This document shows, one piece after another, positions 9,171-57,995 of a DNA stretch of 64,000 bases. Position numbers and translations under genes: made by a program. This DNA comes from Cryptosporidium bovis. Its lineage: Eukaryota > Apicomplexa > Conoidasida > Eucoccidiorida > Cryptosporidiidae. Location: assembly GCA_009768925.2 (NCBI GenBank), contig VHIT02000002.1:186001-250000 (forward strand), written 5' to 3'. Every line of letters begins with the position of its first letter. Positions within the stretch are counted from its first letter, which is position 1. The notes under the pieces are model-generated. The model was not told the origin of the DNA. It did no database searches and was given only the letters and a program-made list of their open reading frames with translations.

Positions 9171-9589
9171 TTAATAGGAAACTAATACTGATAAATTAGT
9201 GTATTATTGCTGTTTTTTTAATATTTCTTTTTTTGTGTAAATATTTGTGTTTGGTATAATAGATTCTATAGTTGTCAATATTATAATTCTTTTTACTTTA
9301 ATAAAAAAAATTAGAATAGACAAAAAAGCATGAATAATTAGATGATCAAGGTGCATGTATGATCTAGGGCGCAAGTGAGAGGTTATTAAAAAAAATGTGA
9401 ACTATGGGTAAAAATTGGTGTTTGAAAGTACAGCAGGAAAGATTTATTATATAATAAACAATATATCACATTGTAAATAGTATAAAGTAACTAAAAACAT
9501 TGGTGTTTGTATACAAGTAGTAGACAGAATCTCGGTATTTTACAAGAATAGTATTGAATTGTAAAATATATATTTTTGTGTTGGATAAG
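9171..9589. other. Intergenic region before the FPL-domain gene
   Basis: About 420 bases between two plus-strand genes. It contains one TGCATG word (near 9352) and nothing else that I recognise. An open frame continues upstream from the chosen start of the next gene to 9554, but its first codon is TTG. Confidence 0.6.
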
Positions 9590-31325: not shown

Positions 31326-31931
31326 CTATTCAGCAGTTGAGATAGGGGCAGAAGTGGAGGTAGATGTGGTTGTAGAAGGAATAGTAAGTGGAGTCATCTT
31401 GAACTCCATGATGTTGGTTACAAATTGCAAAACTACATCTATAAGGTCTATACAAATGCCTTCAGTACCCTTTTTCACTTCTTCATTTTTCCTAGTCTCT
31501 AACTTCTGTTTAATACTTTCCAGGCAATGCTTGCAACTTTCAGTACTATTTATGCAATCCTTCAAACATTGAGTAATACTTTTTAGCAGTTCAAACAACC
31601 ATTTAAGGAGTTCTTCACAAACTTGATAATTAGTTTTGAGTTTCTCTAGTAATTCAATAAATTTGCTCACTTTTGTAATTGATATATTCAATAATAATAC
31701 TTGTCTACTATTCGGTCTAGAAGAAACATCAGGTGTTGGGGGTAGAGGTGGAGGTGGAGGTGGTGTGTTTAGAGGGGTCTCTCCAGAATCTAAATTAGAA
31801 TTACTCTTATCTTCTGACCTAATTCTCAACAAAGAATAGGGTTCCACCAAGAAAGAAGAATTTTCATTTGATGTACCAAAACTGAGTAATGTAAAGATAA
31901 ACACCAATAAAATACCCTTCATTTTTTTCAT
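31326..31931 (-). CDS. Secreted Cys-containing helical protein with Ser/Thr tail
   Basis: A 201-residue protein with a clear signal peptide (MKKMKGILLVFIFTLLSFG). After a short Ser/Asn region and a proline run (about 51-60), residues about 75-165 form an amphipathic helical domain with about seven Cys (CEELLKWL, CLKDCINSTESCKHCLES, GICIDL), so disulfide bonding is likely. The C-terminus is a short mucin-like Ser/Thr/Pro tail. No family was recognised. It is followed in the same direction by the cyclin gene and preceded by another secreted-protein gene, and its upstream DNA carries an E2F-type palindrome plus three TGCATG words, suggesting stage-regulated expression. Secretion is well supported; function is unknown. 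Confidence 0.75.
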   Translation of the reverse strand: MKKMKGILLVFIFTLLSFGTSNENSSFLVEPYSLLRIRSEDKSNSNLDSGETPLNTPPPPPPLPPTPDVSSRPNSRQVLLLNISITKVSKFIELLEKLKTNYQVCEELLKWLFELLKSITQCLKDCINSTESCKHCLESIKQKLETRKNEEVKKGTEGICIDLIDVVLQFVTNIMEFKMTPLTIPSTTTSTSTSAPISTAE

Positions 31932-37948: not shown

Positions 37949-40702
37949 ATGACAGTGGCTACATCTAGCAGGAGAAACTCAAGGAGAACAAGCGTTTCCT
38001 CTGAATCTGGGTTGTCAAACAATGTAGCTTCCTCAAAACCAAAAAATTCCTATATTCAAAAGAATTCAATAACAGGATTTGGAAGCTTGTCTGGAGGACA
38101 AAAGTTGAGAAATAGTGGTTTTGGATGCAATAGTGATAATCGAGCATATCTTACACAAAATAGTGTAATGGATGACATTGGGAAAAAATCCAATTCTGTT
38201 GAGTGGATTCTAAACCCAAACATTTACAGTTACAAGGAACTAAAGGGACTCATTGAGTGTGAAAATGAGCATCGTGGAGAAAACTCTTTGAGAAAGTACT
38301 CTACAGGAGCATCTAAAAGTTCAAATGGAAAAAGTATTCGTCAGGTAATTTCCTCAATAGTAAGGGGAGGTTCTTCAAAAATGAAAAGCAGGAGTGCATC
38401 TATTGAGACCTCCGGGATAAATGAATTCAACAAAGACTCAGAAAATAGTGGAGCTCGAATAGAAGCCGAACTTTTAGATCTCGGGAACAAATATAATAAT
38501 AAAACAATTGCTTTATCTTCTCCAAACTCAAACTCAATATCTTATCCACTGTCGAATGAATCTTCATCTCAAATTCAGAATTATGGAAAATCCTTGCCTT
38601 TTATTAAATCAAGTTCTAAAAATGCTCATAGTGGCTTTGGAGGAGGTGATAATTCGCCAATCGAATCTATATCTAATACTAATACAGGGGAAACAGTGCC
38701 AGTACTAACTGGTGCGCCTATACAAAAATCAATATTAACACAAAAGGATGTGTTGGACCTCAGAAACAAACTTGATAATGTACTTTTAACTGAAGATAAT
38801 TTCATAAGATCTTCCTTGTGTTCCTTCAAGCAATTTGACAAAGATAAAGACGGAAACATAACTATAGATGAGTTGTTGGATCTCTTAACTACTTTAGGAG
38901 AGCACTTGGCACTTCCACCAATAAACAGAAAAATAGTCGCAAATGAGATCTCGATTAGGTTAAACTCAAATACAACAGTTGACAGTAGTGCAACCGAGAA
39001 CAAGATGCTCATTAGTTTTCCTTTCTTTTTAAAATATTTTTTGAGTGTTTTAACTACAATCAGGCAGAAGCACTTCGGATTAAACAGATCATCTTATATA
39101 ATCCAAAATAAATCAGTTAGAAAACACCTGGTTCATGAAGATGACATAAATGATCTTTACACATTTCACTACCAACTCGGAGCAGGCACGCATGGTGAGG
39201 TTTATTTAGTAACAGAAAATTATACAAGACAAAGAAGATCGTGCAAGATTGTGGACAAAACAAGATGTAGCAGAAAACTAGACGAAATTGACCAAAAAGT
39301 TGAGATATTGAAACAACTAGATCATCCAGGGGTCATCCATACATATGAAGTATATGAAGATAAGTTAAATCTTTACATAATCCAAGAATACTGTTCAGGT
39401 GGCAATTTATTTCACTCATTACAGGATGCTATTCAAGGGGGATTTAGGTTTTCAGAGTACCATGTTTCTAGAATAATACAACAAATATTGCTTGGAATTC
39501 GTTATTTGCATCTTAAAAGAGTTGTACACAAAAATCTCAAGCCTCAAAACATTTTACTAACAAATTCTTTTGGAAGTGGAAACACCTCAATTAAACTCTC
39601 AGACTTTGGACTTTGCGAGATTTTTAATAATTGTTTACCTGTTTCTGGTAATTCTTCAACTAAAGAAGAGGAAGACAATAATTTGTCTCTAGAAAACATT
39701 GGGTCTCTCGAGTACAGAGCCCCTGAAATTATTAATAACCAGACCTTTTCTTATAGTGTAGATGTTTGGGCTACGGGAGTGATAATGTATACTATAATAA
39801 CGGGTTTCCACCCATTTAAAGGCAAAAATTCGGAGGAAACAAAATTAAATATTTGCAGGGGTGAACCGTGCATAGAAAAGATTATAGGAGTATCTAGTGG
39901 ATGTAAAGCACTTTTAAAAAGAATGCTGGAAAAAAACCCAAGAGACAGAATTACTGTAGAAGAGGCCCTAAGTCACGACTGGTTTTCCATTTCATATTCA
40001 AATTTCAGTGAGGTTGATATTGGAGCTCCTCTTTTAACTCATTTGAGAATTTACACAAAACAGTCCGATTTAAGACACCTCCTAATTCACATGCTATCGC
40101 ATCAGCTTGCTCTTGATACTACCCAAATCAATATGGTAACAAGTATATTCCGTTCCTTAGATACCAATAATGATGGAGTACTTTCAATTCAAGAACTTAT
40201 AACTGGATTGAAAAAGCTCGGAGTCACATCTAGGGAGTCTTCGCTAATTTCTAAAGCTATGGATGTGGATGGAAACGGGTTAATTTCCTATAGTGAATTT
40301 ATTTCTGCTTGCTATATCTGGAGACAAAACGAAATAAGGCATCTTAAATCATTCTTCATGAAAATAGACAGAAATAATGATGGCAAAATAGACAGAAATG
40401 AGTTCAAACAATTACTTAAAGCCCAAAAGTCCAAGTTACTTTCTAATATTACTAGGAGCTTTTCATGTATTAGAGAGACCAATCACAGGACAATTCTTCC
40501 CTCTTCAAACCAAGGAGTATATACAGAGTGGGATGCAGTCCTGGACGAGATAGACTCAAATAGAGACGGCGAAATTGACTGGAATGAATTCTGCAGCTTT
40601 ATAGTAGAATACTTTCAAAACTCAAGAGAGTCAGTTAAAGCTGCTTCCTCTCTCCCCAAAACTAGTGGTACTTTTGCTCCTCAACTTCCTTCAACTAATT
40701 AG
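37949..40702 (+). CDS. Calcium-dependent protein kinase-like protein, probable pseudokinase
   Basis: A 917-residue CDPK. A Ser/Asn-rich N-terminus is followed by an extra EF hand at about 290-310 (FDKDKDGNITIDE), a kinase domain at about 405-680, and four C-terminal EF hands (DTNNDGVLSIQE, DVDGNGLISYSE, DRNNDGKIDRNE, DSNRDGEIDWNE). The kinase has a usual Gly loop (GAGTHGEV), the beta-3 Lys in SCKIVDK (about 430), DFG and APE. The catalytic loop, however, reads HKNLKPQN, with Asn529 (codon AAT at 39533) in place of the catalytic Asp. That substitution normally abolishes phosphotransfer, so this is likely a calcium-binding pseudokinase or an unusually slow kinase. No N-terminal myristoylation Gly follows the Met. 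The domain order with an EF hand before the kinase is known in some apicomplexan CDPKs. Confidence 0.9.
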   Translation: MTVATSSRRNSRRTSVSSESGLSNNVASSKPKNSYIQKNSITGFGSLSGGQKLRNSGFGCNSDNRAYLTQNSVMDDIGKKSNSVEWILNPNIYSYKELKGLIECENEHRGENSLRKYSTGASKSSNGKSIRQVISSIVRGGSSKMKSRSASIETSGINEFNKDSENSGARIEAELLDLGNKYNNKTIALSSPNSNSISYPLSNESSSQIQNYGKSLPFIKSSSKNAHSGFGGGDNSPIESISNTNTGETVPVLTGAPIQKSILTQKDVLDLRNKLDNVLLTEDNFIRSSLCSFKQFDKDKDGNITIDELLDLLTTLGEHLALPPINRKIVANEISIRLNSNTTVDSSATENKMLISFPFFLKYFLSVLTTIRQKHFGLNRSSYIIQNKSVRKHLVHEDDINDLYTFHYQLGAGTHGEVYLVTENYTRQRRSCKIVDKTRCSRKLDEIDQKVEILKQLDHPGVIHTYEVYEDKLNLYIIQEYCSGGNLFHSLQDAIQGGFRFSEYHVSRIIQQILLGIRYLHLKRVVHKNLKPQNILLTNSFGSGNTSIKLSDFGLCEIFNNCLPVSGNSSTKEEEDNNLSLENIGSLEYRAPEIINNQTFSYSVDVWATGVIMYTIITGFHPFKGKNSEETKLNICRGEPCIEKIIGVSSGCKALLKRMLEKNPRDRITVEEALSHDWFSISYSNFSEVDIGAPLLTHLRIYTKQSDLRHLLIHMLSHQLALDTTQINMVTSIFRSLDTNNDGVLSIQELITGLKKLGVTSRESSLISKAMDVDGNGLISYSEFISACYIWRQNEIRHLKSFFMKIDRNNDGKIDRNEFKQLLKAQKSKLLSNITRSFSCIRETNHRTILPSSNQGVYTEWDAVLDEIDSNRDGEIDWNEFCSFIVEYFQNSRESVKAASSLPKTSGTFAPQLPSTN

Positions 40703-40951: not shown

Positions 40952-43900
40952 CTATTCTAGATCAATAATTTCACCTATATGAGTAATTTCAATCTTTCCA
41001 TGATTGAGTTTCTTCGAGTTCACTGTAAGAGGGAATGACAGTCCAGGAACAAATGGTTTATTATCCGAATCACAGTCAATGTATGGCCATCTAAATGAGA
41101 CTCTAATGACTCCAGAGTGTCTGACTCTCCAAAATCTTTGTAATGTTTCAAAGAAATCCTTTTCAAGAAGGGTCTTGTCAGCTTCGGTTAGTTGCAAGTT
41201 TGGATTATTCTTCTTATTATATTCAGTGAATCCGCTTCTTGAACGTGCCTCTGAGAGGAGTTCATCGAATACACCTGATCGTGAAATGGGAAAGTTTCTA
41301 TTATACGCCTCCAAAATTTTGATAAGCTGAACATCAGATGGATCAGCGGCATTTAATGAATGTTTTCTTGAGAATTCATTCCAAGAAACCTTAATGAAAT
41401 TAATGAAGTTAAACTCATGGAAAGAGATTCCATTAAATGAGTAATTTGGTAAGAGCCACGGTAACTCCTCACTAGTGCAAACAAAAGGTTTAGAGAATGC
41501 AATCTCGAATACTCTAGAAAAGTCTGTTATATCCCCTTCAAAAGAGCCATAAATTCTTTCTAGAATAAACCAGTCATGAAGAGAAACAAACTCACTTACA
41601 AGTCTTGGAGTAGCTCTCGTGGCAGGAATAAATTCGAGTATTACAAGAGCTTTTGTGTATGGTGATACATTGGTGCCCTCAGAGGTTGGCCAAAAATGTT
41701 TAGCTATGACTCCACATTTAGAGTCTGAGAACTCTTTTAATATTTTAGGTAGGGATTCGATTCCTGTAGTTGAAGAGAAGAATCTCCTTGCAAGTTGGCA
41801 AATGAATTTACTGTAATAAAATGTATTTTTTTGTGTGCCATCTAGGATTTCCAAGTCTAATGGTACATGTCCAAGTTGATCCAAAACATTAACCAAATCT
41901 ACAGTATTTTTATATTCCGATTCTGGAACTCTATCATTGACGGAGAATATAATCTTCTCTGTTATGTAGAAGGCATCTAAAAGCTGGAATACCTTATAAA
42001 ATTCTATTTTTCCGAAGAAAAGAGAAATGTGTGGGGTCGACTCAAAAATATCCATGGTAGTCAAACTTGAAAAGAATTTAACACATTCATCAATAGATAT
42101 TCCTTTAACTCCGCCATAAGGTTTCGTTGAAACATTAGCAAACATATAAAATGCTGCTGCCCTGTTTGCAATGTGAACGGAAATTCTATGAAATTTATCC
42201 TTAAAAATGAGATAACCATCCTTAACATAACCAAGAGAATCAAGTAGAGGATTAATTGGACTTTGTTTTTTTATATTTAAGCCTGAAACTAAGAGAAATC
42301 CTGAATAGGAAATAGGATTATATTTAAATGGTGTCTTTTTTTTATAGCCTTCCAAGGAATATAAAAGAGTAAGATCAAATTTTGATGTTTTACTCCTTAC
42401 AATTAGAGACATAAATTCCTTGCATTTATTTGAAAAAGAAGGAAGAATATCGCAAATGAGAATCGGTGATAATCCAAATGTCCTAAAAACTATATTTTTT
42501 AGATGGCTGTAATCTCCAAGAATTTCGTTCAACGAAGAGGGATTAAAATCAATTGGTGAATCAACGAGACCCTTGTTATTCTTTTCTAAATCAAGACTTG
42601 TAATATTCGAGTCATATTTAGGCCAGGAACCACGAGACAATTCTCCAAGAGTCGAAGTAACTTTTTCCAAAATGCGAACTAGGATATCACTTGAAAGGTC
42701 ACCAATATCAATGTTCATCTCCAAAAGTGAATTCAGTATAGTATCAGAAATGCAATTCAAAGACTCAATTGTTACAAAACCACAATGAGAAATCCTAATA
42801 AGAATTCCTGGAATTGCAAAGTTTATAGATGCTGGAATATTAAGAATGAATTTGTTAGTTTGTTGATTAATAATGCAATTCAACGATAATAATATGAAAA
42901 GAAGTCCATTAATATCTATCACATAGTTTTCAAGGATAGGACTGTAAACAAATCCGAAATATGTATCAATTAATGTTCCATCCAACTGTGAAGCCAATCC
43001 TATTTCAGGAATGGTGCTGAATATCGGAGGTCTTTTATGAAATTTATGTAAATTTAGGCAATCCAGTATTAAATTTTCCGAAGAGCTAAACACATTAATG
43101 CGTGAAACGAAGAAATAATTGCTGGATAGAGACAATATCTCTCCATTGGTTAGATGAATTCCCATTTTTCTTAATGACAAAGTCACTCTTGAAACAATAT
43201 CATCAAATTCAACATTAAATGGATCATAAAGAATGCATTCTTTCAAAACATCAAGCCTTTTTAGAAAATCAAATGACACTTTATTAGCTTTCTTTTTACT
43301 AAGGAAGCGAATACCACCAACAAGTCTTCTTGCAGCACAACCTTGATCAATTCCCAATAGTATACGAATTAAAAATGTTTCAAAATCAAGCATACTTTTT
43401 ATTTTCATTGAGAAAATTGATTTATCATTACCATATAGTTCATACATATTGATCCCGTTAACGTCCAATACTATAATCATAAGAGAACGAAGCAAATCAA
43501 TTGTATGTTTGAAGTTAGGAGTCCCCAAAATAGGCGCAATCATTTCAACATAAAGACTATCATATTGCCTTAATGAAATATCATCGTTACCAGAAGATAC
43601 CTTAATATCTTCAAAATAAAATTCCTCATCAAGAAAACCATAAAGAAGCTTTGAGTTGGAAAAGCTCTCAGAATCAAAATAGTTTAAGTGTTGAGATATT
43701 TCAATAATATATTTGTGAATGGCTTCCGGATGTAGACCAAGAAAAGGAGCCGATATAAGATCTGGTCTATCGCGAGCCCAAACTTCAATTACACAAGTGA
43801 ATTGTTTAAATAATGAAAAATTATCCAAAAGAATAGAAACATCTGGAATAGTAAAGGTTATAGAACTCCTTGGCCTTGCAGAAAAGTACTCTTTGAGCTT

Positions 43901-46900
43901 AAGAGTTAAGTATTCTATCATATTCTTCTTAGCTTGAGACTCAAATGGTGAAGTTGGCCAAACCTCCTTTTTAACTTCACAACTTTTTAGTAAACTTTCA
44001 TCTTTATAGATTGGAATGTTGTCAAGTAAGCTGACGCAAGTGCCAGTTTCATGTAATTCTCTGATGGAGAGATAGCCAGTTCTTACAAGCAATTCATCCT
44101 CAAACTTGCAAAAAGCTGTTACAATCTCCGAAGCAATATCTTTATTTACTAGTTTTGTTAAGGTATAAATAAAAGTATTAAAACTGACAGGGAAGAAGTC
44201 AACACCATCATAACGAATTGTTTCAAACATAATTAAAATACTACTAAAGTTGTTGATTATAGTAAGAATAATCGGGTCTCTATATATTTTTTTATTCAAA
44301 CCCCAGAAACGAATAAGCCATTCTCTAAAAAGTACTGCTCTATTTAAAATACCAACTTCAATTCCATTTAGCTCCGCAAATATAGAATTTGTAATTACTC
44401 CCGAGGGGAAAGACACATTTATACCAAGTTCAATGACAGAATTCATCTCTTCTCTAAGCAAAAATGGATTATATTTTAAAGTGTACAATCGGGAAATTTG
44501 TCTTTGAAGAAATACATTACCTTGATCTAAATGAGACAAATTATCATTTGGGACATGAACCAATTCATCTACATTAATTGATGAGAATCCATTTACCCAT
44601 GGCTTTTGCAATGAACCAGTAATAATTCCACTGTACTCGGAATGATTCTCCAAAAATTTTTCTCTCAAAGTGTTATCATTAAGAAGCTCATTTTCTATTC
44701 TGGAATCAAACAAGTTCTGAGTCTTTGGTCCTATTATTGAATATATTATTTCTTTCACAGGGTCTTCCTCTTGATGATTAATTCCAATTTGAGAAAGATC
44801 ACTAAAATCAACAGTCTTGGAAGCATGGAAAAGAGAATTTATAAATCCTCCGAGACTGGCTCTAGAAGAAAAAGCAACATAAGCCTGATTGCCAATGCTC
44901 TTCCTTACATTATCAACGAATAGGTTATATATAACATTTACTTTTTGAATATTTAGATCACCAAGAGAGTACTTATTATTCGTAGATATCACTCTGAGCA
45001 AGGAATTTGGAAGAGCTTCACCTCTTGAGTTATAATCTGCAACTCTAATCACGTTTTCAAGACTTAACAAATTCATATATGGGAAGGCCAATTTTAGTTT
45101 CTTAGCATTCTTGTTAATAAGGACGCTTATGAAGAATAGAATAAATGAATAAACATAATTGAATGTTGAAACATGGAGGAAGAGGAAATCTCCTAATTTT
45201 TTTCTTACAATATCTGGAATTCCAATAAGACCTCTGGCCTGATCTAAAACTACGATTCCGAAGAAGGATTCATACCAAATAGAACATTGAATAACATCAT
45301 TATCAAATTTGTTGAGGAATTCAATAAAATTCTCCGTAGATACAACTCTGAGATTATCCAATTCAAGGATCACATTAATAAGAGCATTTAATGACCTCCC
45401 AGAAAGTTGTTTAAGATCACTAAAAGCTAAATTTAAAGAAGACTTGTTTCTTGGAAGGAAGTAAGAACTTGTAAATTCTGCCAAAATTCTTGAAAAATGC
45501 TTTGAAAATAGCAAACAGAACTTATTGAATTGAATATAACTGAGATCTTGAGCGTGATACTTAGATATACCATGGACTCTAACCGCATCTAAAACATTAA
45601 CCCCCTTTAACAAAGCACTAACCACCTGATCAAAAGAAAAATAAATAGAAATTACTGAATCGGAAGGAACTTCAGAATCTCTTAAAGCCAAAAAGAAGCT
45701 CTTTTTAACCAAAGAGAAAATGTTTGTCTTTGACTGGTCGCTTAAATCAAAAGCAAAAGGTCTGCAAATATCTAAACTTAAGGATCCAGCGGAATTGGTG
45801 TTCGAACTAGATAACCCTGGAATGCAGGTAAAATCAAGTAACTCCAAATTAACAATTCTAGACAATGGATTACCATATTTGAAAAATCTGTAAAAGTTTT
45901 CTGGAGATAAGAAATCATTAATATCAGCATAACGATCAATTAGCTTAAGCTGAGCTTCTTCGATAATATACGCTGCAAGGGAATCAAAACTTGCACCGAT
46001 AGAAGGTGCCTCGAAGAATCCTCTAATGGAATTTTGTGATTCCAAATTGCTCCAAACGTAAAGAAGATAAGCGAGATTATCCTTTTCCAGAGTAAAATAC
46101 GATCCCAAAAAGAAAGTTGATGGAATCAATGTTGTTGGGTAAAATCTTGGGCCTGCTGCAAAATATTCAGAAATAAGTCTAAATAAATACTGAGCAAGAT
46201 TGTTAGAGCACACTTCATCTAGGTTGCTGTAAACCAATTTACCACTTGGTTTTGGAATAGTTGGTACCTTGAAGTCTAAGTAAATTGCATGAATAGCATT
46301 CAGCATCCCAAGATCTGAATAAGCCTCGTATATATTAGAGGCACCGGTAAATTCAATGGCCTTATCTTCAGAATCGAGGAACCCAAGAAGTAGCAACCTG
46401 AGATGATCATTTCTAGAATATCCCTTAAATTTACCAACTATACGATTATAAAATTCCTTGAATAGAACACTAATATCTGTAGAAAGCTTTACCCGGTCAA
46501 ATATTTCTGAAAGGAATTCAATGCTTGAAAAAAGAGAACCCAAGAAAAAATCATTCGAATAGAAATTAAGTTTATCCCAAGTATACAACCACCAATATAA
46601 AAAGAAGACTGCCCTATTAACTCCGTGAACAAACCTGCCATTTAAATAATTTCCAGGAATAACGTAGCGATAACCATCAGAAACCTTCTCAACAAATTTA
46701 TTTACAACTGCATCAGAATCTTCATTACTTGAATCACCAAGTCTTATATATGAACAAACACCGCTTCTGCAAACATTCGTGAGTATAGGAACGGTTATTT
46801 TAATTTTTGAAGAATACTTTTCTACCAAGCTATTTAGAGTTTCTAGAGGAAAATTGGAAGCCAATTCTCGAGTAGACAGTGGTTTTGAGAGGAAGTAATG

Positions 46901-49900
46901 ATCATGTGGTTTTAGTTGTCTATTTGGATTACGTTGAGAATATCCCGAAGAAATAACTGAAGCCCTACTTTCAGGAGAAATGAAAAGAGAGATCTCCTCC
47001 AAAACACCTCTTGCATTTATTCTACATAAAGAAGTCTCTTCGAGTGTATTAAGTCCAGAATGTCTGTAATTTGGATAATCCGAAAGCTTAATAGGCGTGA
47101 AATTCACAGGTTTTAAGTCTTCAACAATAACTACATTCTTATCAAAGAATGAAGTAATTGCCAAAGTACAAATGTTCATATTACCAAAAATAACATCAAT
47201 TGGAGTGTTTGCATCATATTCGTCATAATAACTTGAAATTATTTCAACTATTTTTGCCTCGAAAAGATCAAGAATGAGATCGAGATCATTTTTCTCTGAA
47301 GAAGTTATGGTAGCGAAACCAGGTAAATTTCTGAAAACGGAGGTAACCAAAGGACGGAAATAGCCCTGCTCAAATCCAGAAATTCCGCAATATCCGCTCC
47401 AAGTTAAGTGTTCTGTAAGAAAATTAGGAGTAAATGATTTAAATCTACCAGAGTTCTGTGGGGACTCAATAATTCTTCCAATAAATAAACCAGCAGAAAG
47501 AAGAATGTTGCAAGCGGAAGTTCTAGTAACGTATAAATTGGCATTTAAAGTCTTTAGATCAGATATTTGGTTATGTTGACGTTGAGCTACAGAGAATAAA
47601 CTTGAAGTATGAAATATTGGAACGTCAGGAGAAATCGAATGTAAGTGAGCCTTTGATTGAGGTACATAACTGTATGAGAATTCAGAATTGAGTGAAAATA
47701 TAAAGGACCACCTTTGAATCATTTCATTACGTACGCTCTCTGGGAAGAAACCACCTGCCAAAGAATCTGCAATTACTATTGAAAATAGACTATGTGCCGT
47801 TGAAATAGACCCTCTATTAATTGTTAACTCATTTAAATATGTTATTAATACACTAATAGACTTCGCAAAAATGGCACACAATTTATTTCTCAAACTTGCA
47901 TTAATCCCTCCAAGAATGGAATTAAAATTGACTCTAGCCGATTCCAAGAAGTGCTGACCAATTGCGTAACTAAAGGAAATATTATAAAGATCTTTTCTCT
48001 CATATTTAATATCAAATCCAATCTTTTCAGAGGCGTAGTTAAGTGCAATCTCAACTAAATCTCCGAATCTAGTAAGTCCCGTTTGGAAGAGATCATTTTC
48101 TTTGACAATTGAATGCAATATGGTCCAACTAAAATTCAACTCAGATTCTATTTCTTTGTCTTTTAAAATAGAAGTAATACTTCCAATAGGCGATCCATAA
48201 TAAATATAATCATCCTCAAAGTGAAGTGTTATATAAGTGCCATCTACCACATCTGTTTGTGGAAGAACATTAAGGATAAAATTAGACAATCCTGGAGCTG
48301 AAGCACCTAAAGAAGGAGCCGATACATAGGGGCTTCCTTCACCAAAAATATTTGAAATCAACAAATTCAAATTATTAATATCTCCCGAAAAATTTATAGC
48401 CAAATTATTTAGTCGAGGGATACCTATTGTTGGCATATTTCTTGGAGAAGAAGCATAATACTCAGCAACTATTCTCTCCAAATACTCGAGGAAATGTACT
48501 CTATCATGAGTTATTTCAGTACCACTATCCCTCTCTGCAGCTCCTGCCTTCGTCGATGGAACAAACGGTACAAAGTCTAAGTGACTAATTAAAGCAAATT
48601 GAGGAGGAGTCCCACCAAATTCTTGAAATCTACCAATGATTCTTGTCCCCCTGTAAGCTTCTTCTAAAGTTGCTGCGGAGGGAGATAATGACATAAGAGC
48701 AGCACGTTCATCACTTATGAACGTTTCTGCAATTATTTCAAATGCCGTATCTTTAAGTCTAATTGGATGTTCGGCAGTAACATCCCACAATAAAAGCCCA
48801 AGAATCTTATGATCTTCAGAATAACCTAAAGTATTAAAAATACCAATAAGTCTATTTACACTCTGAAAATCCCTGCGAAGAAGCGGATCTTTGTTTGCAA
48901 ATGAAATTCTTGGGAAAACTGAGTTCCACCAAACTCTAAAGGCTTGCAAACGATTTATTATTTGTGTTGGTGTAACCATGCCGTCAGAACTTCCATATGG
49001 TTTAATACCTCCATTAGATGGATCCAAAACACCAATATCCAAAGAAGGGTTGAATATACCTTCAGCGATTTTGTACTTGGATGGATCCAAAATAACTTCA
49101 CCCTCCTCTGTTATAGAAACCACACCAATACTTTTTAACTCCTCATCTTTAAGTTGGAATATGAAGGGTGGCAAGAGTCTTTTCTCAGTAATCATTAAGA
49201 GAGCAGCTCCTATGGAATCAGAGGAAATCGAATTCAGCTCTGTAAGAAGCGATTGAATGGTGGATTCAATATCACGAAGAAGATTTTTTGCAGACTCATC
49301 GCTAACTGTTTGTCCTCCAAACTCCAAAAGAAGATTTTTGTATTCCAAATTGAGTCTTTCTATTTCAGAAATAATTTCCTTGATTCTTCCATCACTTTTC
49401 TGATCTCCAGTTATAGCTACACCTGGAATATCTTCTATAGGTCTTGAAATTGGACCTGAAATAAGACCTTTTATTCTTCTAAACTGAAAACCAGATAAAA
49501 GATGATCAACCCATGGAATTAACATAAATACTTTAATATTCTTAAGCCAGGTATTCTCTTTAATGTATTTAACAAAAAGGCTTCCATCTAATCCCAAAGA
49601 TAAGAATACTTTTTTATCCTCCAAATCAGGTGCAATTGCCCAATTTAATAGATCGATTAAAATCCTTTGTTCTGATTCTCCAAAAAAGAATAATCTGTTT
49701 ATAAATCCCAAAGCCACCTCTGCCAAATTGATTGATCCATCTGTAATTTCGCGTTCAACAACATTATCAAACGCTGGAAGAAATGACCAAATAGTTCTTG
49801 GAATGAAGAGTCTTCCCTGTACAAATCCATAGTTTGGAGTAGAAAATATCTGAGTCAAATCTATATTTCTAGCAACAAGGAAGAACTTTTCATAGAAGAA

Positions 49901-52900
49901 ATACGAATCAAACGCCATGGAAAGCATTTCAACAAGAGTACCTTCTAAAATTAAGCCTTTATTATTTAATATAAGATCACGAATTCTTGACTTTGTTGGA
50001 TTTGAGGTTGGAGGAATGCTATCCAATATAGTTCTGATTTCTGCCTTATTAAATTTAGGGATCACGTGAAATTTATGAACAAAATAAAGTTGAATCCACT
50101 GATAAATGTATTCAAACCTATTTTCTTCCACTGAAGGAGATGCATTGATTGGTTTAGAAGAATAGACCAAAGTATTCCCTATGTTGTTAGCAAGATTTCC
50201 AAGCGTTTGTTGAGGATCAACCAGTAACTCCCAACCGTCGAGCCCGTGAACTGCAAGCTTAAATCCTTGGGAATAAATGATTGTATTAAAGGTGGCTCCT
50301 TCATCAACAATACTCAAGTCAAGCATATCCGGCAATACTCGTTCTTCATAATCAATCCACTCTCCAGCAAGAACATCAATAATGGAATCAGAAAAGTATT
50401 CTGAACTCAAAGTTTGTCTCATTTCAGCAATAAGAGCAAATTTAGATCCATCTACACATCCCAAAAGAATTTTGTTTGCTTCCTCTGATGTAATAAACTT
50501 TATATTCTCATCAGAACCATGAGCATTTAATCTATTATTTATAAATGCTTGGAATGTAAAAAGCCTTTGAGTGGACTGACTTGTATCAAAGTTGTAAAAA
50601 TAGTTCCTCGAAGTAATAACAGAAGTTATTTTTTTAAAGTCAATATCAAGTTCAATATAATATCTTCCTTGCACATATTTGGCATGAGGATATTCATAAA
50701 GAGCTTCCAAGAAATTATTTAAAAGTTCTTTCGAACTGAGTTCTTCATTCATTTCAGAATAAAACAAACCAAGTTCAAATTCAATGAAAGACTTAAGCAA
50801 TAGGTTTAATTGATTCGAATCTATCCCAGGAATTTGCACAAACAATGAGAGATCTGAATTTTCATTAATAGCTCCTCCCAATCCATTATAAAAGGAAACT
50901 GCTGAGATATGATAAAAAACTCCAACTCTCATAAGGCACTCCTCAACAAAGGCAGCTGCAAAGATAAATCTATTTTGAACCCAATTTGGTTGAGTGTTAA
51001 AAGCGTAAAACACCTCTTGTTTATGTGATTCTCTAGTTGGAATACCAAGAGCCAATGACTTTGGAGTGACTGTTTCAAGATAACTTGGTGCAGGGAATTC
51101 AGGAACCGAATAAAAAACTTCACGTTTTTGTTTCACTGTTCCTTCAAGAGGTGCTAATTTTTGTCTTTCGTGTTTAATAAAGTGAGAAAAAAGGCTTTCA
51201 ACTTTAACAGGAATATTTTTATGTCTTTCCTGCAAAGTAGCTTTAATTGCAATACTCCATTTTATTCCGGGATGCTTATTACGATATCTATGTGCACCAC
51301 AAAGCTCTTCAATCGTAATGAGATCTCGAACTGTACCTGTTTTAATGAGCCTTTGATTCATAACTTCCATCATAGAACAAAGACGATTTAATTGATTTGC
51401 CTTTAAACCATTACAATCATTAAATAAGACAGAAACAACGCGTCCCAAGTAATCGAGAGTACCTATTTCTTTCCATATTCTCATTTTACTAGATATTGGT
51501 AATCCTTTAATATCCATTTGACGCATCTCAACAATAGCTGATCCTGGACCAAACACATCAATAATGCTTTCTTTTCCAAGTACAATTGGACCTCTTTCAG
51601 AACAACCAATAACATCCATGCATATTCCTTCTAATTCTTCTCTCTGAGAATGAGTTAAGGGTTCATAATGAGTAATTCCAATTACGGTTGAAACTATCTC
51701 AGAGCATTGCTCAATAGTTCTTTCCTCCTCTAAAAGATTAAGAATGATGTAGATCATCGACATAACTTCATCTCTCGCTATAACAATTCCCATTCTCCCT
51801 TCAATCCTTTCTTTAAGAATTTCACCCTTTTCCCTATAAATTGGAAGTAATCTCGATTCGAAAGAATTATCTTTCGGATATACGGAAAGATGGAAGAAAT
51901 TACTTATCTCAATAGCCGACATTTGCTTGGATTTGTTGTCAGCTCTGTGTCTTGGTAACTGAAGAAAATAATTCGTCAAGTCTCTAACCCTATCTAAAAT
52001 CCCATTTCTGTCCTCCATTCTACCAAGTATAACATCATTCTGTAATACGGCCCCGATAATGTTCACAAATTGTGTTCTTGTTCTCATTCCACTATAAATA
52101 TGAAGAAGAATCCTTAACATTAAACAAGAATCTTGAATGTTAACAAACTGCCCCAAAATATCACTAAGCCTTCTTGCAAAAGGCAATGCCAATCCCACAA
52201 ATTGAGATGGAGTTATTCTTATCTCTCGATTCTCATATGCATTCTTCGCTGAACTAAAGAGAGATGCACATTCACTAGTCTTTCTAAATGGACTTGTTGC
52301 GATCTTTGGAAAATATTTACCGTGATAGGGATTCAAGTTCCTATAAGTTCTTCTTTCCTTGGGATCCTGCCAAATATAATCCTTAACTCCAGGTACAAAA
52401 CTCAAAAGCTCTTTCATTGTTTCTATTGATTTCAATGAATGAGACGAGGATAAAGATGATGTAGATGAGGAAGACGACTTCTTGGATTTCTTTTTTGCAC
52501 CTGTTTTGTGCTCGGATTTTTTTTTATCGAGATCAACCTGTATTCCAATATCAATTTTCTTACTACCGGAAGACTTTCTTTTCTTCTTTTTTGTTCGATC
52601 TAACTTAACGCCAACACCTGCCGAATCTCCACCATCATCTTTACCTGACTCCTTGCTTGTAGCAGATTCATATGACTTGCTTGTATGCCTTGACTTCTTC
52701 GATCTTTCCACTCCAGATCCAGAAGACGACTCTGAATCATCGTATCTCATTCCAGGTACCGGATATCTCGGCAAACTCGCTGTATCTGGGTATTTCGCTG
52801 CTCTTACACGATCTACTTTTGAAAGTTTTTGTGCTTCTTTACCTTGAACAAATAAACCCCAACCATTTTTATAATTTATGTTATTATCTTTGCTATAATT

Positions 52901-53008
52901 ATTATGTAAGTTGTATTGTAATCCTATATATAAAAATATAAATATTAACGACCTCTTTCCAACACCAAATACACCAAAGGGTGTTCTGGTAATTTTCAAA
53001 GATTTCAT
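40952..53008 (-). CDS. Giant secreted modular protein, unrecognised
   Basis: A single uninterrupted frame of 4018 residues. A hydrophobic segment at about 19-34 after a basic start reads as an uncleaved anchor or signal peptide. Residues about 70-190 are Ser/Lys-rich low complexity. From about residue 195 the chain is continuous folded-looking sequence, rich in Phe, Leu and Ile, with few Cys. By eye it contains long-period repeats. An NRA..F..W motif occurs near 1350, 2129, 2887 and 3610. An EY[FY]..xPR motif occurs near 1513, 2278, 3036 and (degenerate) 3735. An APS[LI]G motif occurs near 1563, 2333 and 3086. The period is about 720-780 residues. The short C-terminal tail has no anchor. Known giant apicomplexan secreted proteins with EGF, TSP or LamG domains show none of this; no domain could be named. 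Confidence 0.75.
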   Translation of the reverse strand: MKSLKITRTPFGVFGVGKRSLIFIFLYIGLQYNLHNNYSKDNNINYKNGWGLFVQGKEAQKLSKVDRVRAAKYPDTASLPRYPVPGMRYDDSESSSGSGVERSKKSRHTSKSYESATSKESGKDDGGDSAGVGVKLDRTKKKKRKSSGSKKIDIGIQVDLDKKKSEHKTGAKKKSKKSSSSSTSSLSSSHSLKSIETMKELLSFVPGVKDYIWQDPKERRTYRNLNPYHGKYFPKIATSPFRKTSECASLFSSAKNAYENREIRITPSQFVGLALPFARRLSDILGQFVNIQDSCLMLRILLHIYSGMRTRTQFVNIIGAVLQNDVILGRMEDRNGILDRVRDLTNYFLQLPRHRADNKSKQMSAIEISNFFHLSVYPKDNSFESRLLPIYREKGEILKERIEGRMGIVIARDEVMSMIYIILNLLEEERTIEQCSEIVSTVIGITHYEPLTHSQREELEGICMDVIGCSERGPIVLGKESIIDVFGPGSAIVEMRQMDIKGLPISSKMRIWKEIGTLDYLGRVVSVLFNDCNGLKANQLNRLCSMMEVMNQRLIKTGTVRDLITIEELCGAHRYRNKHPGIKWSIAIKATLQERHKNIPVKVESLFSHFIKHERQKLAPLEGTVKQKREVFYSVPEFPAPSYLETVTPKSLALGIPTRESHKQEVFYAFNTQPNWVQNRFIFAAAFVEECLMRVGVFYHISAVSFYNGLGGAINENSDLSLFVQIPGIDSNQLNLLLKSFIEFELGLFYSEMNEELSSKELLNNFLEALYEYPHAKYVQGRYYIELDIDFKKITSVITSRNYFYNFDTSQSTQRLFTFQAFINNRLNAHGSDENIKFITSEEANKILLGCVDGSKFALIAEMRQTLSSEYFSDSIIDVLAGEWIDYEERVLPDMLDLSIVDEGATFNTIIYSQGFKLAVHGLDGWELLVDPQQTLGNLANNIGNTLVYSSKPINASPSVEENRFEYIYQWIQLYFVHKFHVIPKFNKAEIRTILDSIPPTSNPTKSRIRDLILNNKGLILEGTLVEMLSMAFDSYFFYEKFFLVARNIDLTQIFSTPNYGFVQGRLFIPRTIWSFLPAFDNVVEREITDGSINLAEVALGFINRLFFFGESEQRILIDLLNWAIAPDLEDKKVFLSLGLDGSLFVKYIKENTWLKNIKVFMLIPWVDHLLSGFQFRRIKGLISGPISRPIEDIPGVAITGDQKSDGRIKEIISEIERLNLEYKNLLLEFGGQTVSDESAKNLLRDIESTIQSLLTELNSISSDSIGAALLMITEKRLLPPFIFQLKDEELKSIGVVSITEEGEVILDPSKYKIAEGIFNPSLDIGVLDPSNGGIKPYGSSDGMVTPTQIINRLQAFRVWWNSVFPRISFANKDPLLRRDFQSVNRLIGIFNTLGYSEDHKILGLLLWDVTAEHPIRLKDTAFEIIAETFISDERAALMSLSPSAATLEEAYRGTRIIGRFQEFGGTPPQFALISHLDFVPFVPSTKAGAAERDSGTEITHDRVHFLEYLERIVAEYYASSPRNMPTIGIPRLNNLAINFSGDINNLNLLISNIFGEGSPYVSAPSLGASAPGLSNFILNVLPQTDVVDGTYITLHFEDDYIYYGSPIGSITSILKDKEIESELNFSWTILHSIVKENDLFQTGLTRFGDLVEIALNYASEKIGFDIKYERKDLYNISFSYAIGQHFLESARVNFNSILGGINASLRNKLCAIFAKSISVLITYLNELTINRGSISTAHSLFSIVIADSLAGGFFPESVRNEMIQRWSFIFSLNSEFSYSYVPQSKAHLHSISPDVPIFHTSSLFSVAQRQHNQISDLKTLNANLYVTRTSACNILLSAGLFIGRIIESPQNSGRFKSFTPNFLTEHLTWSGYCGISGFEQGYFRPLVTSVFRNLPGFATITSSEKNDLDLILDLFEAKIVEIISSYYDEYDANTPIDVIFGNMNICTLAITSFFDKNVVIVEDLKPVNFTPIKLSDYPNYRHSGLNTLEETSLCRINARGVLEEISLFISPESRASVISSGYSQRNPNRQLKPHDHYFLSKPLSTRELASNFPLETLNSLVEKYSSKIKITVPILTNVCRSGVCSYIRLGDSSNEDSDAVVNKFVEKVSDGYRYVIPGNYLNGRFVHGVNRAVFFLYWWLYTWDKLNFYSNDFFLGSLFSSIEFLSEIFDRVKLSTDISVLFKEFYNRIVGKFKGYSRNDHLRLLLLGFLDSEDKAIEFTGASNIYEAYSDLGMLNAIHAIYLDFKVPTIPKPSGKLVYSNLDEVCSNNLAQYLFRLISEYFAAGPRFYPTTLIPSTFFLGSYFTLEKDNLAYLLYVWSNLESQNSIRGFFEAPSIGASFDSLAAYIIEEAQLKLIDRYADINDFLSPENFYRFFKYGNPLSRIVNLELLDFTCIPGLSSSNTNSAGSLSLDICRPFAFDLSDQSKTNIFSLVKKSFFLALRDSEVPSDSVISIYFSFDQVVSALLKGVNVLDAVRVHGISKYHAQDLSYIQFNKFCLLFSKHFSRILAEFTSSYFLPRNKSSLNLAFSDLKQLSGRSLNALINVILELDNLRVVSTENFIEFLNKFDNDVIQCSIWYESFFGIVVLDQARGLIGIPDIVRKKLGDFLFLHVSTFNYVYSFILFFISVLINKNAKKLKLAFPYMNLLSLENVIRVADYNSRGEALPNSLLRVISTNNKYSLGDLNIQKVNVIYNLFVDNVRKSIGNQAYVAFSSRASLGGFINSLFHASKTVDFSDLSQIGINHQEEDPVKEIIYSIIGPKTQNLFDSRIENELLNDNTLREKFLENHSEYSGIITGSLQKPWVNGFSSINVDELVHVPNDNLSHLDQGNVFLQRQISRLYTLKYNPFLLREEMNSVIELGINVSFPSGVITNSIFAELNGIEVGILNRAVLFREWLIRFWGLNKKIYRDPIILTIINNFSSILIMFETIRYDGVDFFPVSFNTFIYTLTKLVNKDIASEIVTAFCKFEDELLVRTGYLSIRELHETGTCVSLLDNIPIYKDESLLKSCEVKKEVWPTSPFESQAKKNMIEYLTLKLKEYFSARPRSSITFTIPDVSILLDNFSLFKQFTCVIEVWARDRPDLISAPFLGLHPEAIHKYIIEISQHLNYFDSESFSNSKLLYGFLDEEFYFEDIKVSSGNDDISLRQYDSLYVEMIAPILGTPNFKHTIDLLRSLMIIVLDVNGINMYELYGNDKSIFSMKIKSMLDFETFLIRILLGIDQGCAARRLVGGIRFLSKKKANKVSFDFLKRLDVLKECILYDPFNVEFDDIVSRVTLSLRKMGIHLTNGEILSLSSNYFFVSRINVFSSSENLILDCLNLHKFHKRPPIFSTIPEIGLASQLDGTLIDTYFGFVYSPILENYVIDINGLLFILLSLNCIINQQTNKFILNIPASINFAIPGILIRISHCGFVTIESLNCISDTILNSLLEMNIDIGDLSSDILVRILEKVTSTLGELSRGSWPKYDSNITSLDLEKNNKGLVDSPIDFNPSSLNEILGDYSHLKNIVFRTFGLSPILICDILPSFSNKCKEFMSLIVRSKTSKFDLTLLYSLEGYKKKTPFKYNPISYSGFLLVSGLNIKKQSPINPLLDSLGYVKDGYLIFKDKFHRISVHIANRAAAFYMFANVSTKPYGGVKGISIDECVKFFSSLTTMDIFESTPHISLFFGKIEFYKVFQLLDAFYITEKIIFSVNDRVPESEYKNTVDLVNVLDQLGHVPLDLEILDGTQKNTFYYSKFICQLARRFFSSTTGIESLPKILKEFSDSKCGVIAKHFWPTSEGTNVSPYTKALVILEFIPATRATPRLVSEFVSLHDWFILERIYGSFEGDITDFSRVFEIAFSKPFVCTSEELPWLLPNYSFNGISFHEFNFINFIKVSWNEFSRKHSLNAADPSDVQLIKILEAYNRNFPISRSGVFDELLSEARSRSGFTEYNKKNNPNLQLTEADKTLLEKDFFETLQRFWRVRHSGVIRVSFRWPYIDCDSDNKPFVPGLSFPLTVNSKKLNHGKIEITHIGEIIDLE

Positions 53009-54772: not shown

Positions 54773-55423
54773 ATGAAGGTATATACAGTCTTTGCATTAC
54801 TTTTATTACTTGCAGTTACCACAAATGCAGTGAGAATCAGAAATGGTAATCTTGGTGGTAGATTGGAACCAACGGTTGGTGATGAACAAGGCGATCATGG
54901 AAATGATGATGGAAACAATGGTGTTGAACCATCAACAACTCCAGGTAACGGAGATGGTAATGATGAATCATCTAGTTTGGAAACAACTACCACTACTACT
55001 ACTGCTGCACCAAAACCAAGACAATCAATTAAGGATAGATTATATGATTTCTTTGGATTCGGAGGTCATAAACCCTCTAAGCAACCTGTTAAGAGTGGTG
55101 AGCAAGGTGAAGATGGTGAAAAACGTGATGAGGATGGTGAAAAACGTGGTGAGGATGGTCAAAAACGTGATGAGGATGGTGAAAAACATGATGAGGATGG
55201 TCAAAAACATGATGAGGATGGTGAAAAACATGATGAAGATGGTGAAAAACGTGATGAAGATGGTGAAAAACGTGATGAAGATGGTGAAAAACATGATGAG
55301 GATGGTGAAAAACGTGATAAGGATGGTGAAAGACAAGATGGCGAGGAAGATGAAAAACAAGATAGAAACAGTGGTGATAAGCATGGAGCGAATGACGGAA
55401 AACAAGGTGACGATGGTTTTTAA
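54773..55423 (+). CDS. Secreted heptapeptide-repeat protein
   Basis: A 216-residue protein with a strong signal peptide (KVYTVFALLLLLAVTTNA), an acidic Gly/Asn-rich segment, a mucin-like Thr run (about 70-78), a short conserved-looking segment SIKDRLYDFFGFGG (about 84-97), and then eleven tandem heptads of the type EDGEKRD/EDGEKHD/EDGQKRD (residues about 113-189). The tail is also charged. It is highly hydrophilic and likely secreted and antigenic. No family was recognised. Copy number of the repeat is expected to vary between isolates, as for other Cryptosporidium repeat antigens. The upstream DNA has AP2-like and E2F-like words. Confidence 0.8.
   Translation: MKVYTVFALLLLLAVTTNAVRIRNGNLGGRLEPTVGDEQGDHGNDDGNNGVEPSTTPGNGDGNDESSSLETTTTTTTAAPKPRQSIKDRLYDFFGFGGHKPSKQPVKSGEQGEDGEKRDEDGEKRGEDGQKRDEDGEKHDEDGQKHDEDGEKHDEDGEKRDEDGEKRDEDGEKHDEDGEKRDKDGERQDGEEDEKQDRNSGDKHGANDGKQGDDGF
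55109..55339 (+). repeat. Eleven 21-bp tandem repeats
   Basis: Minisatellite with unit GAGGATGGTGAAAAACGT plus GAT, each unit coding seven residues. Variants alternate CGT/CAT (Arg/His), GAA/CAA (Glu/Gln) and GAG/GAA. Because the unit is a multiple of three with no stops in the other frames, overlapping frames stay open through it in both directions. Confidence 0.9.
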
Positions 55424-56225: not shown

Positions 56226-57995
56226 ATGAAACAATTTTTATTCAAGTTATTGTGTTCATCGCTTCTCCTTCTCTTCCGAATTAACTTAAAGTTTGGTGGA
56301 GTAAACGGTGCGAAAATAGAACCTAGAGGAGTTAATTTAGAATCAGAATCAAAAAGCACAGAAATAACAAGTCAGAGATGTGTATTTGAAACACTACAAA
56401 GACTTACATTTTCAAATGGTAGACTACCACCTAAAGTTACAAGGAAAAAAATAAGCGATGCTGTTACAAGTTGTATGGAGTCTTTCGGTAATATAGTATA
56501 CCCTTCTGTAATAGAAGAAACATTGTATTTAACACTGGGACAATATGGACATATATCGCAAGTTAATGTGGATAAAACATTGGAATTTATAAATGATGTA
56601 CAGATTAAAGTGGATTCTGAAGTTAAATCATATTCACACATTTATTCATTGGCACAAGTTAAAAGTTTTTGTAATATATATGAAAAATTTTTATTATTAT
56701 CATTTGATAAAAATTACTTTAATTCATTTTTACCAGAAGATAGTGAGAGATGTGAAGAATTATTGAAGAGGATTAAACAAAATGCATTTTACTCTTATTG
56801 GAAAAGAGGAGGAATAGTTGTAGACCAGGCACAACCAGTTGTCGATGATATTGTTCCGAAAGATCCACCTGTAGCTCCTTATGTTCCTCCACAAATAACG
56901 CCTACTACTACTACCACCACCACCACTGCTACTACTACTACCATTATGTCACCAACTATTCCAGAGAACACAAAATCTGAACGTTCACTATCATCTCATC
57001 CACCACCACCTCCAGATCCAGAAATAAATGTTAATGTGCTAAGTAATCCCGAGAGAAGTGATGATAACTCTCTTTCTGAAAAATTAAGAAAAGAAATTGA
57101 ATTATTAGAGAAAGAGCAACTTGAGGAAGAAATTGAGGAGCAAGAAGAGAGTGGATGTTGTGGATGTTGTGGTTGTTCCAGCTGTAATAAGTCAAAGAAG
57201 AAAAATAAGAAAGAGACAAATATTATTATTATATCTGATGGCGATATTGAAAGAGAAGTTGTGGAAGATGATGATTCATGCTGTACATGTGGTAAAAAGA
57301 AAAAGAAAAAAGACCATATTGACGACATCCTGGAGGAAAAAAATAAGGATGATGATGGTTCATGTTGTGCATGTGGCAAGAAAAAAAAGAAAGATGAGAA
57401 AAATGATAATCTTGATGACTTCCCAGGAGAGGAAGAAAATGATTCATGTTGTTCCTGTTGTAAAAAAAGAAAGAAAGATAAGAAAAAAGATGATATCGAT
57501 GAAATTTTAGACGAGAAAAATGAAAAAGATTCGTGTTGTGCATGTTGTAAAAAGAAAAAGAAAAAAGACCATATTGACGACATCCTGGAGGAAAAAAATA
57601 AGGATGATGATGGTTCATGTTGTGCATGTGGCAAGAAAAAAAAGAAAGATGAGAAAAAGGATAATCTTGATGACTTCCCAGGAGAGGAAGAAAATGGTTC
57701 ATGTTGTGCTTGTTGTAAGAAAAAAGGCAAAGTTGATGTTGTCCTAGAGGAGGAAGAAAATGATTCTTGCTGTTCATGTTCTAGCAAAAAAAAGGAGAAA
57801 GAAGAGGATTCTTGTTGTTCATGTTCTAGCAAAAAAAAGGAGAAAGAAAAGGATGAATACAACGAAAACTTAACCAGTGTTGATGAAGAAATTAAGAGAT
57901 TAGAGAGAGAATTAGCTGAGGCCGCTGCTGAAGACTCTGATTCAGAAGGTTCATCTTGTAGTTGTTGTGGTAGGAAGAGTAAAAAAAAGTTATGA
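56226..57995 (+). CDS. Secreted protein with Cys-cluster/poly-Lys repeats
   Basis: A 589-residue protein with an N-terminal signal peptide (about 1-30). Residues about 50-195 are a non-repetitive helical domain with four to six Cys. A mucin-like Thr stretch (about 223-240) and a proline run follow. From about 310 the chain alternates acidic segments with clusters of the form SCCxCxxKKKKK: about eight Cys clusters each followed by a Lys run. CCxCC clusters may bind metal, be palmitoylated if cytosolic, or crosslink by disulfides if secreted; the signal peptide favours the last. No family was recognised. The gene carries a recent internal duplication (listed separately). Confidence 0.75.
   Translation: MKQFLFKLLCSSLLLLFRINLKFGGVNGAKIEPRGVNLESESKSTEITSQRCVFETLQRLTFSNGRLPPKVTRKKISDAVTSCMESFGNIVYPSVIEETLYLTLGQYGHISQVNVDKTLEFINDVQIKVDSEVKSYSHIYSLAQVKSFCNIYEKFLLLSFDKNYFNSFLPEDSERCEELLKRIKQNAFYSYWKRGGIVVDQAQPVVDDIVPKDPPVAPYVPPQITPTTTTTTTTATTTTIMSPTIPENTKSERSLSSHPPPPPDPEINVNVLSNPERSDDNSLSEKLRKEIELLEKEQLEEEIEEQEESGCCGCCGCSSCNKSKKKNKKETNIIIISDGDIEREVVEDDDSCCTCGKKKKKKDHIDDILEEKNKDDDGSCCACGKKKKKDEKNDNLDDFPGEEENDSCCSCCKKRKKDKKKDDIDEILDEKNEKDSCCACCKKKKKKDHIDDILEEKNKDDDGSCCACGKKKKKDEKKDNLDDFPGEEENGSCCACCKKKGKVDVVLEEEENDSCCSCSSKKKEKEEDSCCSCSSKKKEKEKDEYNENLTSVDEEIKRLERELAEAAAEDSDSEGSSCSCCGRKSKKKL
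57292..57696 (+). repeat. Two near-identical 150-bp direct repeats, 255-bp period
   Basis: The block at 57292-57441 recurs at 57547-57696 with essentially one base difference (AAATG versus AAAGG in the GAGAAAAA.GATAAT stretch). Each encodes a KDHIDDILEEKN...SCCACGKKKKK...LDDFPGEEEN module. A further short duplication of about 45 bp (DSCCSCSSKKKEKE) lies at about 57760-57850. Confidence 0.9.

What the first reader, a model, noticed from the sequence alone, without database searches (positions are those of the whole stretch)
40952..53008. 4018-residue secreted protein made of ~750-residue repeating modules
One uninterrupted 12-kb frame with an N-terminal signal, no nameable domain, and three motifs (NRA..F..W, EYF..xPR, APS[LI]G) recurring in the same order and at the same offsets (about 150 and 200 residues) with a period of roughly 720-780 residues. 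This implies an ancient tandem duplication of a large unknown globular domain, so it may be a new extracellular or secretory-organelle fold family.
Basis: partly seen in the sequence, partly recalled or inferred. Interest (0 to 1): 0.75.

Follow-up and report, generated by a model that had tools for sequence, protein, structure and literature searches.

The report
Giant secreted Cryptosporidium helical-repeat protein family
A gut parasite of cattle carries a gene for a very large, secreted-type protein built from repeated helical blocks, and it belongs to a small family of three such proteins seen so far only in the parasite genus Cryptosporidium.

Summary
One minus-strand frame (53008..40952, 4018 aa) encodes a protein with a hydrophobic N-terminus, no Pfam or PDB relative, and three modules of about 730-780 residues, proven by profile-profile comparison (R1/R2 E~1e-27, R2/R3 E~6e-18). 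A fourth copy (NR at 3615) has weaker support. The organism is Cryptosporidium bovis. Ten relatives align end to end (nine named, all Cryptosporidium, gastric species included). A tree groups modules by copy, so the duplication predates that radiation.

New here: it is not an orphan. The same genome encodes two further secreted-type paralogs (2356 and 1056 aa) sharing its conserved N-terminal domain, and all three carry helices starting NR-x6-[FWY]: seven invariant NR sites in this protein (six with the aromatic), six such in the second, one in the third. AlphaFold models of modest confidence are all-helical strings of small bundles with no convincing PDB match, so 'one large globular domain' is probably wrong and 'new fold' is unproven.

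Most likely role (inferred): a giant lumenal scaffold released from a secretory organelle and laid down at the host-parasite interface. Localisation was not testable here.

The parts
40952..53008 (-). Whole reading frame, 4018 aa, stop included
   Evidence: relatives
52904..53008 (-). Residues 1-35: hydrophobic N-terminal signal-like segment
   Evidence: hydropathy
52424..52903 (-). Residues 36-195: Ser/Lys-rich linker; PRYPxPGMxYD motif (80-90) invariant in the 8 sequences of alignment A1, less so in the gastric species
51509..52354 (-). Residues 219-500: N0 domain shared by all three paralogs; residues 190-660 are the best conserved part (50-97% identity)
51029..51496 (-). Residues 505-660: first NR unit (NR at 541), directly after N0; NR aligned in all three paralogs
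50693..50995 (-). Residues 672-772: second NR unit (NR at 679), may be the start of a diverged module R0
50054..50131 (-). Residues 960-985: third NR site (NR at 963), invariant
46673..49006 (-). Residues 1335-2112: module R1 (NR 1352, EYY, APS)
44423..46672 (-). Residues 2113-2862: module R2 (NR 2131, EYF, APS)
42233..44422 (-). Residues 2863-3592: module R3 (NR 2889, EYF, APF)
40955..42232 (-). Residues 3593-4018: partial, diverged module R4 (NR 3615)

Best explanation
What it is (shown by sequence): the largest member of a three-gene family of secreted-type proteins in C. bovis; relatives of two of the three were found in other Cryptosporidium (the third was not searched). Layout: signal-like segment, linker, conserved N0 domain, NR unit, then in the giant further NR sites and three to four copies of a ~750-residue module that were duplicated before the sampled species diverged. 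How it works (inferred): it enters the ER, is stored in an apical secretory organelle, and after release acts as a non-enzymatic structural scaffold, a long chain of small helical bundles whose shared N0/NR surfaces let the three paralogs or other interface proteins assemble, most likely in the genus-specific layers between parasite and host cell. Repetition gives length and many binding sites, not catalysis. Shown: frame, conservation, modules, paralogs, absence of known domains at the thresholds used. Predicted: all-helical multi-bundle architecture. Inferred: secretion, organelle, interface location, scaffolding.
For: Repeats and age. Paralogs: the N-terminal region hits the C23 frame at E 2.5e-14 and the C2 frame at E 1.4e-7 in the own genome, reciprocal; profile-profile L8 580-914 vs 219-542 prob 98.2, E 5e-14; N0a profile hits L7 at E 2.6e-14 and L8 at 3e-10, best of 63 controls 0.93. 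NR sites: 7 of 15 NR dipeptides are invariant in 11 of 11 sequences, although only 142 of 4017 dipeptides are; aromatic at +8 in 6 of 15 NR here (6 of those 7), in 6 of the 7 NR of L7 that can be scored (an eighth is too near the end), 1 of 1 in L8, 4 of 48 in 16 other window genes. L8's unit ranks the four module starts first among 19 segments of the giant (68, 33, 33, 19% against at most 1.6%), over the full unit for R2 and R4, over 14-22 residues for R3 and R1. Five cysteines of N0/first NR unit are invariant in the three paralogs, as expected of a disulfide-forming lumenal protein. All-helical models. No enzyme or adhesive domain by Pfam or PDB sequence.
Against: Nothing here shows localisation, expression, secretion or partners; no paralog interaction was tested. 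The N-terminal hydrophobic stretch of C. bovis is short, and one internal stretch (3362-3380, 2.0 over 19 residues) is as hydrophobic as a membrane span, though neither C. meleagridis nor C. muris has a listed peak there. The strongest conservation, in N0, could equally mean a binding or enzymatic role.
Confidence: 0.45

Rival explanations
1. Invasion adhesin or ligand: stored in micronemes or the rhoptry and exposed at the apex to bind a host receptor, with repeated modules giving avidity.
For: Secreted type, repeated modules, strong conservation of N0; its tail-to-tail neighbour is a CDPK whose first residues match the CpCDPK9 primer, and that kinase is reported mainly in the apical region of sporozoites.
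Against: No known adhesive domain, no C-terminal membrane span among the hydropathy peaks listed; neighbours need not share location.
Confidence: 0.2
2. Structural protein of another compartment, such as oocyst, residual-body or crystalloid-like stores, not the host interface.
For: Large, repeated, secreted type; one paralog has a collagen-like Gly-Pro tract.
Against: Cys-poor overall (39 Cys in 4018), unlike the Cys-rich oocyst wall proteins (recalled).
Confidence: 0.15
3. Resident of the secretory pathway that escorts or packs cargo into organelles (a lumenal sorting scaffold).
For: Fewer N-glycan sequons than the reversed motif suggests transit of the ER lumen (18 against 36; 8-14 against 34-36 in three gastric species), while 17 other window frames are even (186 against 189, summed).
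Against: No ER retention tail: it ends IIDLE; no depletion in the C. meleagridis and C. tyzzeri proteins (33 against 33, 34 against 32).
Confidence: 0.1
4. Enzyme with an unrecognised helical catalytic domain, N0 being the active part.
For: N0 and the first NR unit keep invariant Cys, Arg, Asp, Glu, Gln and Asn in 9 of 9 rows from three paralogs.
Against: Invariant residues spread over the whole stretch; no convincing fold match to an enzyme.
Confidence: 0.05

Closest known systems
Relatives annotated as hypothetical, uncharacterized or 'putative integral membrane protein' (C. xiaoi RS030_6870, C. ryanae FG386_003701, C. ubiquitum cubi_02799, C. muris CMU_033260, C. meleagridis and others)
   Same: Same protein along its length, 29-94% identity
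   Different: No function, domain or repeat is given in the names returned; hydropathy of the C. meleagridis protein shows one peak over 1.6, at the N-terminus
Paralog L8, C. bovis FG379_000366 (1056 aa); relatives named 'signal peptide-containing protein' in C. hominis and C. canis
   Same: N0 domain followed by one NR unit
   Different: Short; collagen-like Gly-Pro-Met tract; no 750-residue modules. Its NR unit resembles the module starts more than the giant's own first NR unit
Paralog L7 (contig C23, 2356 aa, unnamed)
   Same: N0 domain, NR unit directly after it (E 6.6e-6), six NR-x6-aromatic sites in all
   Different: No 750-residue modules detected; a second stretch like the first NR unit at 1648-1704
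Cryptosporidium interface proteins DG8, SG4, CP2 (PMC13241007, PMC12782386; passages seen)
   Same: Works-like comparison only: secreted Cryptosporidium proteins at the parasite-host interface
   Different: Different proteins by size (DG8 predicted 90 kDa, SG4 ends at residue 789, CP2 80 kDa and disordered); no sequence comparison was made
Cyclin-box-like folds and P. falciparum P113 (9lpt)
   Different: Below the level that the tool itself regards as meaningful for helical bundles; no sequence hit; the published P113 N-terminal domains are lectin-like and mainly beta (passages of PMC7482062)

Membership tests
N0/NR-helix family proposed here | N0 domain detectable by profile | tested here: met
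   prob 98.2; E 2.6e-14 (L7) and 3e-10 (L8); best of 63 controls 0.93
N0/NR-helix family proposed here | NR directly following N0 | tested here: met
   N and R invariant in 9 of 9 rows from three paralogs and NR 541 in 11 of 11; in L8 the profile match stops at NR
N0/NR-helix family proposed here | Hydrophobic signal-like N-terminus | tested here: inconclusive
   hydropathy and reading only; no dedicated predictor available
Any Pfam-A family | Score above the curated cut-off | tested here: not met
   best NBD94 13.4 bits against cut-off 25, MCM_WH_arc 12.7 against 26.1; scans of module and N0 members gave only E 0.023 or worse
Reticulocyte-binding homologs (NBD94, PF16830) | NBD94 domain above cut-off | tested here: not met
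   E 0.11, 13.4 bits, cut-off 25, residues 1213-1254 only
Cyclin-box-like fold | Cyclin box recognised structurally | tested here: inconclusive
P113 helical region | Structural match well above background | tested here: inconclusive
Rhoptry, microneme, dense-granule or small-granule proteins | Localisation to the organelle | not testable with these tools
   no localisation data could be read; supplementary tables were not available

The most novel reading that the evidence does not exclude
N0 and the NR-x6-[FWY] helical unit are a new domain family invented in the Cryptosporidium lineage, and its three secreted members, the giant as backbone, build a part of the genus-specific attachment or feeder interface for which no protein architecture is known.
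Probability: 0.22. Interest if true: 0.8.

Novelty: new variant of a known kind. Interest (0 to 1): 0.5.

Why it matters
Cryptosporidium lives in a niche of its own, with an interface whose electron-dense band is described as composed of unknown parasite proteins (passage of PMC13241007). A conserved three-member secreted-type family with a giant modular member is a concrete candidate set. The 459-residue N0-NR piece of the smallest paralog is a tractable structural target, and the shared signature makes the family searchable in gregarines and other relatives.

Full report
Observation. The finding gives no strand; the frame is on the minus strand, 40952..53008, ATG, 4018 aa, with the plus strand closed. 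The genome holding the window has 9.06 Mb in 43 contigs; a protein read from it (L8) is 100% identical over the searched part to C. bovis FG379_000366, so the organism is Cryptosporidium bovis. Residue i begins at 53008-3(i-1) and runs downwards.

Conservation. Two searches, with the protein and with its alignment, returned 10 relatives in all; nine are named and all nine are Cryptosporidium, including the gastric C. muris, C. andersoni and C. serpentis; the tenth is unnamed. Lengths are 3800-4162 aa and identities to the window protein 29-94%. Conservation is uneven: residues 190-660 keep 50-97% identity, the rest 23-95%, the first 190 residues 24-88%.

Repeats. A lag scan of the single sequence peaks at 765, 759, 1524 and 779 with scores 72, 64, 63 and 55; five shuffles reach at most 41. 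Pieces of R1 and R2 searched against the own genome find other modules at E 1.2e-5, 2.2e-8 and 7.1e-4. Profile-profile comparison of 400-residue tiles gives R1/R2 at E 5.5e-29 and 1e-26 over 1351-1727 vs 2130-2514, R2/R3 at 6e-18, R1/R3 at 1e-16, and the later halves 1831-2173 vs 2614-2931 at 6e-9. Hence R1 and R2 repeat over nearly the whole module; R3 is secure over its first ~240 residues. Sixteen putative units compared in all 120 pairs put same-position units of the modules on top, b-b, a-a and c-c (E 2e-19 to 8e-7). In an alignment of 33 module copies (3 copies, 11 sequences) 13 columns are the same in 33 of 33 rows: N37, R38, F42, W45, D59, E120, Y188, T198, P202, G244, G375, N401 and N523 of the R2 piece.

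Age. A tree of the first ~245 residues of R1, R2 and R3 in 11 sequences (33 rows) separates the copies: R1 support 99/98, R3 100/99, R2 only 63/76. The program warns of long branches meeting. The copies therefore predate the split of intestinal and gastric Cryptosporidium.

Family. Searching the own genome with residues 195-1340 found two further frames: C23:219356-220495 (E 2.5e-14) and C2:157949-158662 (E 1.4e-7). They belong to L7 (2356 aa) and L8 (1056 aa), both with hydrophobic N-termini on reading. Reverse searches return the giant (E 7.6e-16 and 1.5e-7). Profile-profile: L8 580-914 vs residues 219-542, probability 98.2, E 5e-14. NR follows N0 in all three: N and R are invariant in 9 of 9 rows of A5, as are five cysteines at giant positions 247, 295, 435, 532 and 570. 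After NR the first unit of the giant is recognisable in L7 (E 6.6e-6) but not in L8. The L8 search returned L8 itself and five relatives: C. ryanae, C. hominis, C. canis and two unnamed. Module R2 finds no other gene in the genome at E<=1. No other window frame matches the family profiles better than shuffled frames do, for the two profiles that were checked against shuffles.

NR helix. The giant has 15 NR dipeptides; 7 (541, 679, 963, 1352, 2131, 2889, 3615) are identical in 11 of 11 sequences, whereas only 142 of 4017 dipeptides, 28 of 248 N and 35 of 188 R are. An aromatic residue eight positions after N occurs in 6 of those 7 and in 0 of the other 8. In L7 it occurs in 6 of the 7 NR that can be scored (binomial P 2e-5; no other offset from 3 to 20 exceeds 3); in the giant offsets 5 and 13 come close (5 each against 6, P 0.005 for offset 8). 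L8 has 1 of 1; 16 other window frames have 4 of 48. A profile of the module starts finds L7 712-819 at E 0.002 and L8 905-1008 at 0.0057, best of 78 controls 0.27; with slightly different borders 0.017, 0.019 and 0.013, best of 114 controls 0.093. These are suggestive only, as larger shuffles of window frames reach 0.0058 with the iterated profile. L8's unit compared with 19 segments of the giant ranks the four module starts first, including the doubtful fourth at 3597-3711; the R2 and R4 matches cover the unit, the R3 and R1 matches only 14 and 22 residues. I cut the segments around the modules.

Secretion. A hydrophobic N-terminal stretch can be read in all 11 sequences printed. Hydropathy over 19 residues was listed for three: C. 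meleagridis peaks only at the N-terminus, C. muris at the N-terminus and twice inside, C. bovis only inside (3362, 2613, 2913, 408), so the internal peaks are not consistent. N-glycan sequons are fewer than the reversed motif here (18 against 36) and in gastric relatives (8-14 against 34-36), not in C. meleagridis or C. tyzzeri (33/33, 34/32); 17 other window frames sum to 186 against 189. A hint only.

Context. Tail to tail lies a CDPK (37949-40702) whose first residues MTVAT match the forward primer printed for CpCDPK9, cgd7_1260, in PMC8875172 (passages seen). If gene order is kept, the C. parvum ortholog is the next gene. cgd7_1270 is named in PMC8552020 among 61 genes said there to evolve neutrally (passages seen); whether that is this gene is unverified. 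Five flanking frames also begin with hydrophobic segments.

Reading. Secure: a real, ancient, modular giant and a family of three secreted-type proteins in Cryptosporidium. Predicted: helical multi-bundle. Inferred: structural scaffold at the parasite-host interface. It may work like, but is not shown to be, one of the known interface proteins (DG8, SG4, CP2; passages of PMC13241007 and PMC12782386 seen; abstract and outline of PMC13419397 seen).

Noticed in passing
window 58638-63020 (-): 1460-aa secreted-type frame with the motif HCDFHQGN, like the catalytic loop of aminoglycoside/choline kinases (motif recalled), but no Pfam or PDB hit above noise.
   Followed up: partly
window 31326-31931 (-), 32199-34160 (-), 54773-55423 (+), 56226-57995 (+), 58638-63020 (-): Five further frames with hydrophobic N-termini lie around the giant: a neighbourhood rich in secreted-type genes.
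   Followed up: no
L008:3763-6933 (-): Paralog L8 carries a collagen-like Gly-Pro-Met tract (residues ~247-294, Pfam Collagen 13.2 bits against cut-off 27.2) before its N0 domain.
   Followed up: partly
L007:3215-10000 (+) and L009:3-785 (+): Paralog L7 has a second stretch like the first NR unit at residues 1648-1704 (E 0.0066, best of 63 controls 0.91), hinting at an old internal duplication there too.
   Followed up: partly
window 40952-53008 (-): N-glycan sequons are fewer than the reversed motif in the bovis/xiaoi/ryanae and gastric proteins but not in C. meleagridis or C. tyzzeri; a clade difference left unexplained.
   Followed up: partly
window 37949-40702 (+): CDPK9-like kinase with kinase domain and C-terminal EF hands and a long N-terminal extension, neighbour of the giant.
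   Followed up: partly
window 9554-13588 (+) and 817-4641 (+): A frame with a PF09758 FPL domain (E 5e-41) and a bromodomain protein.
   Followed up: no
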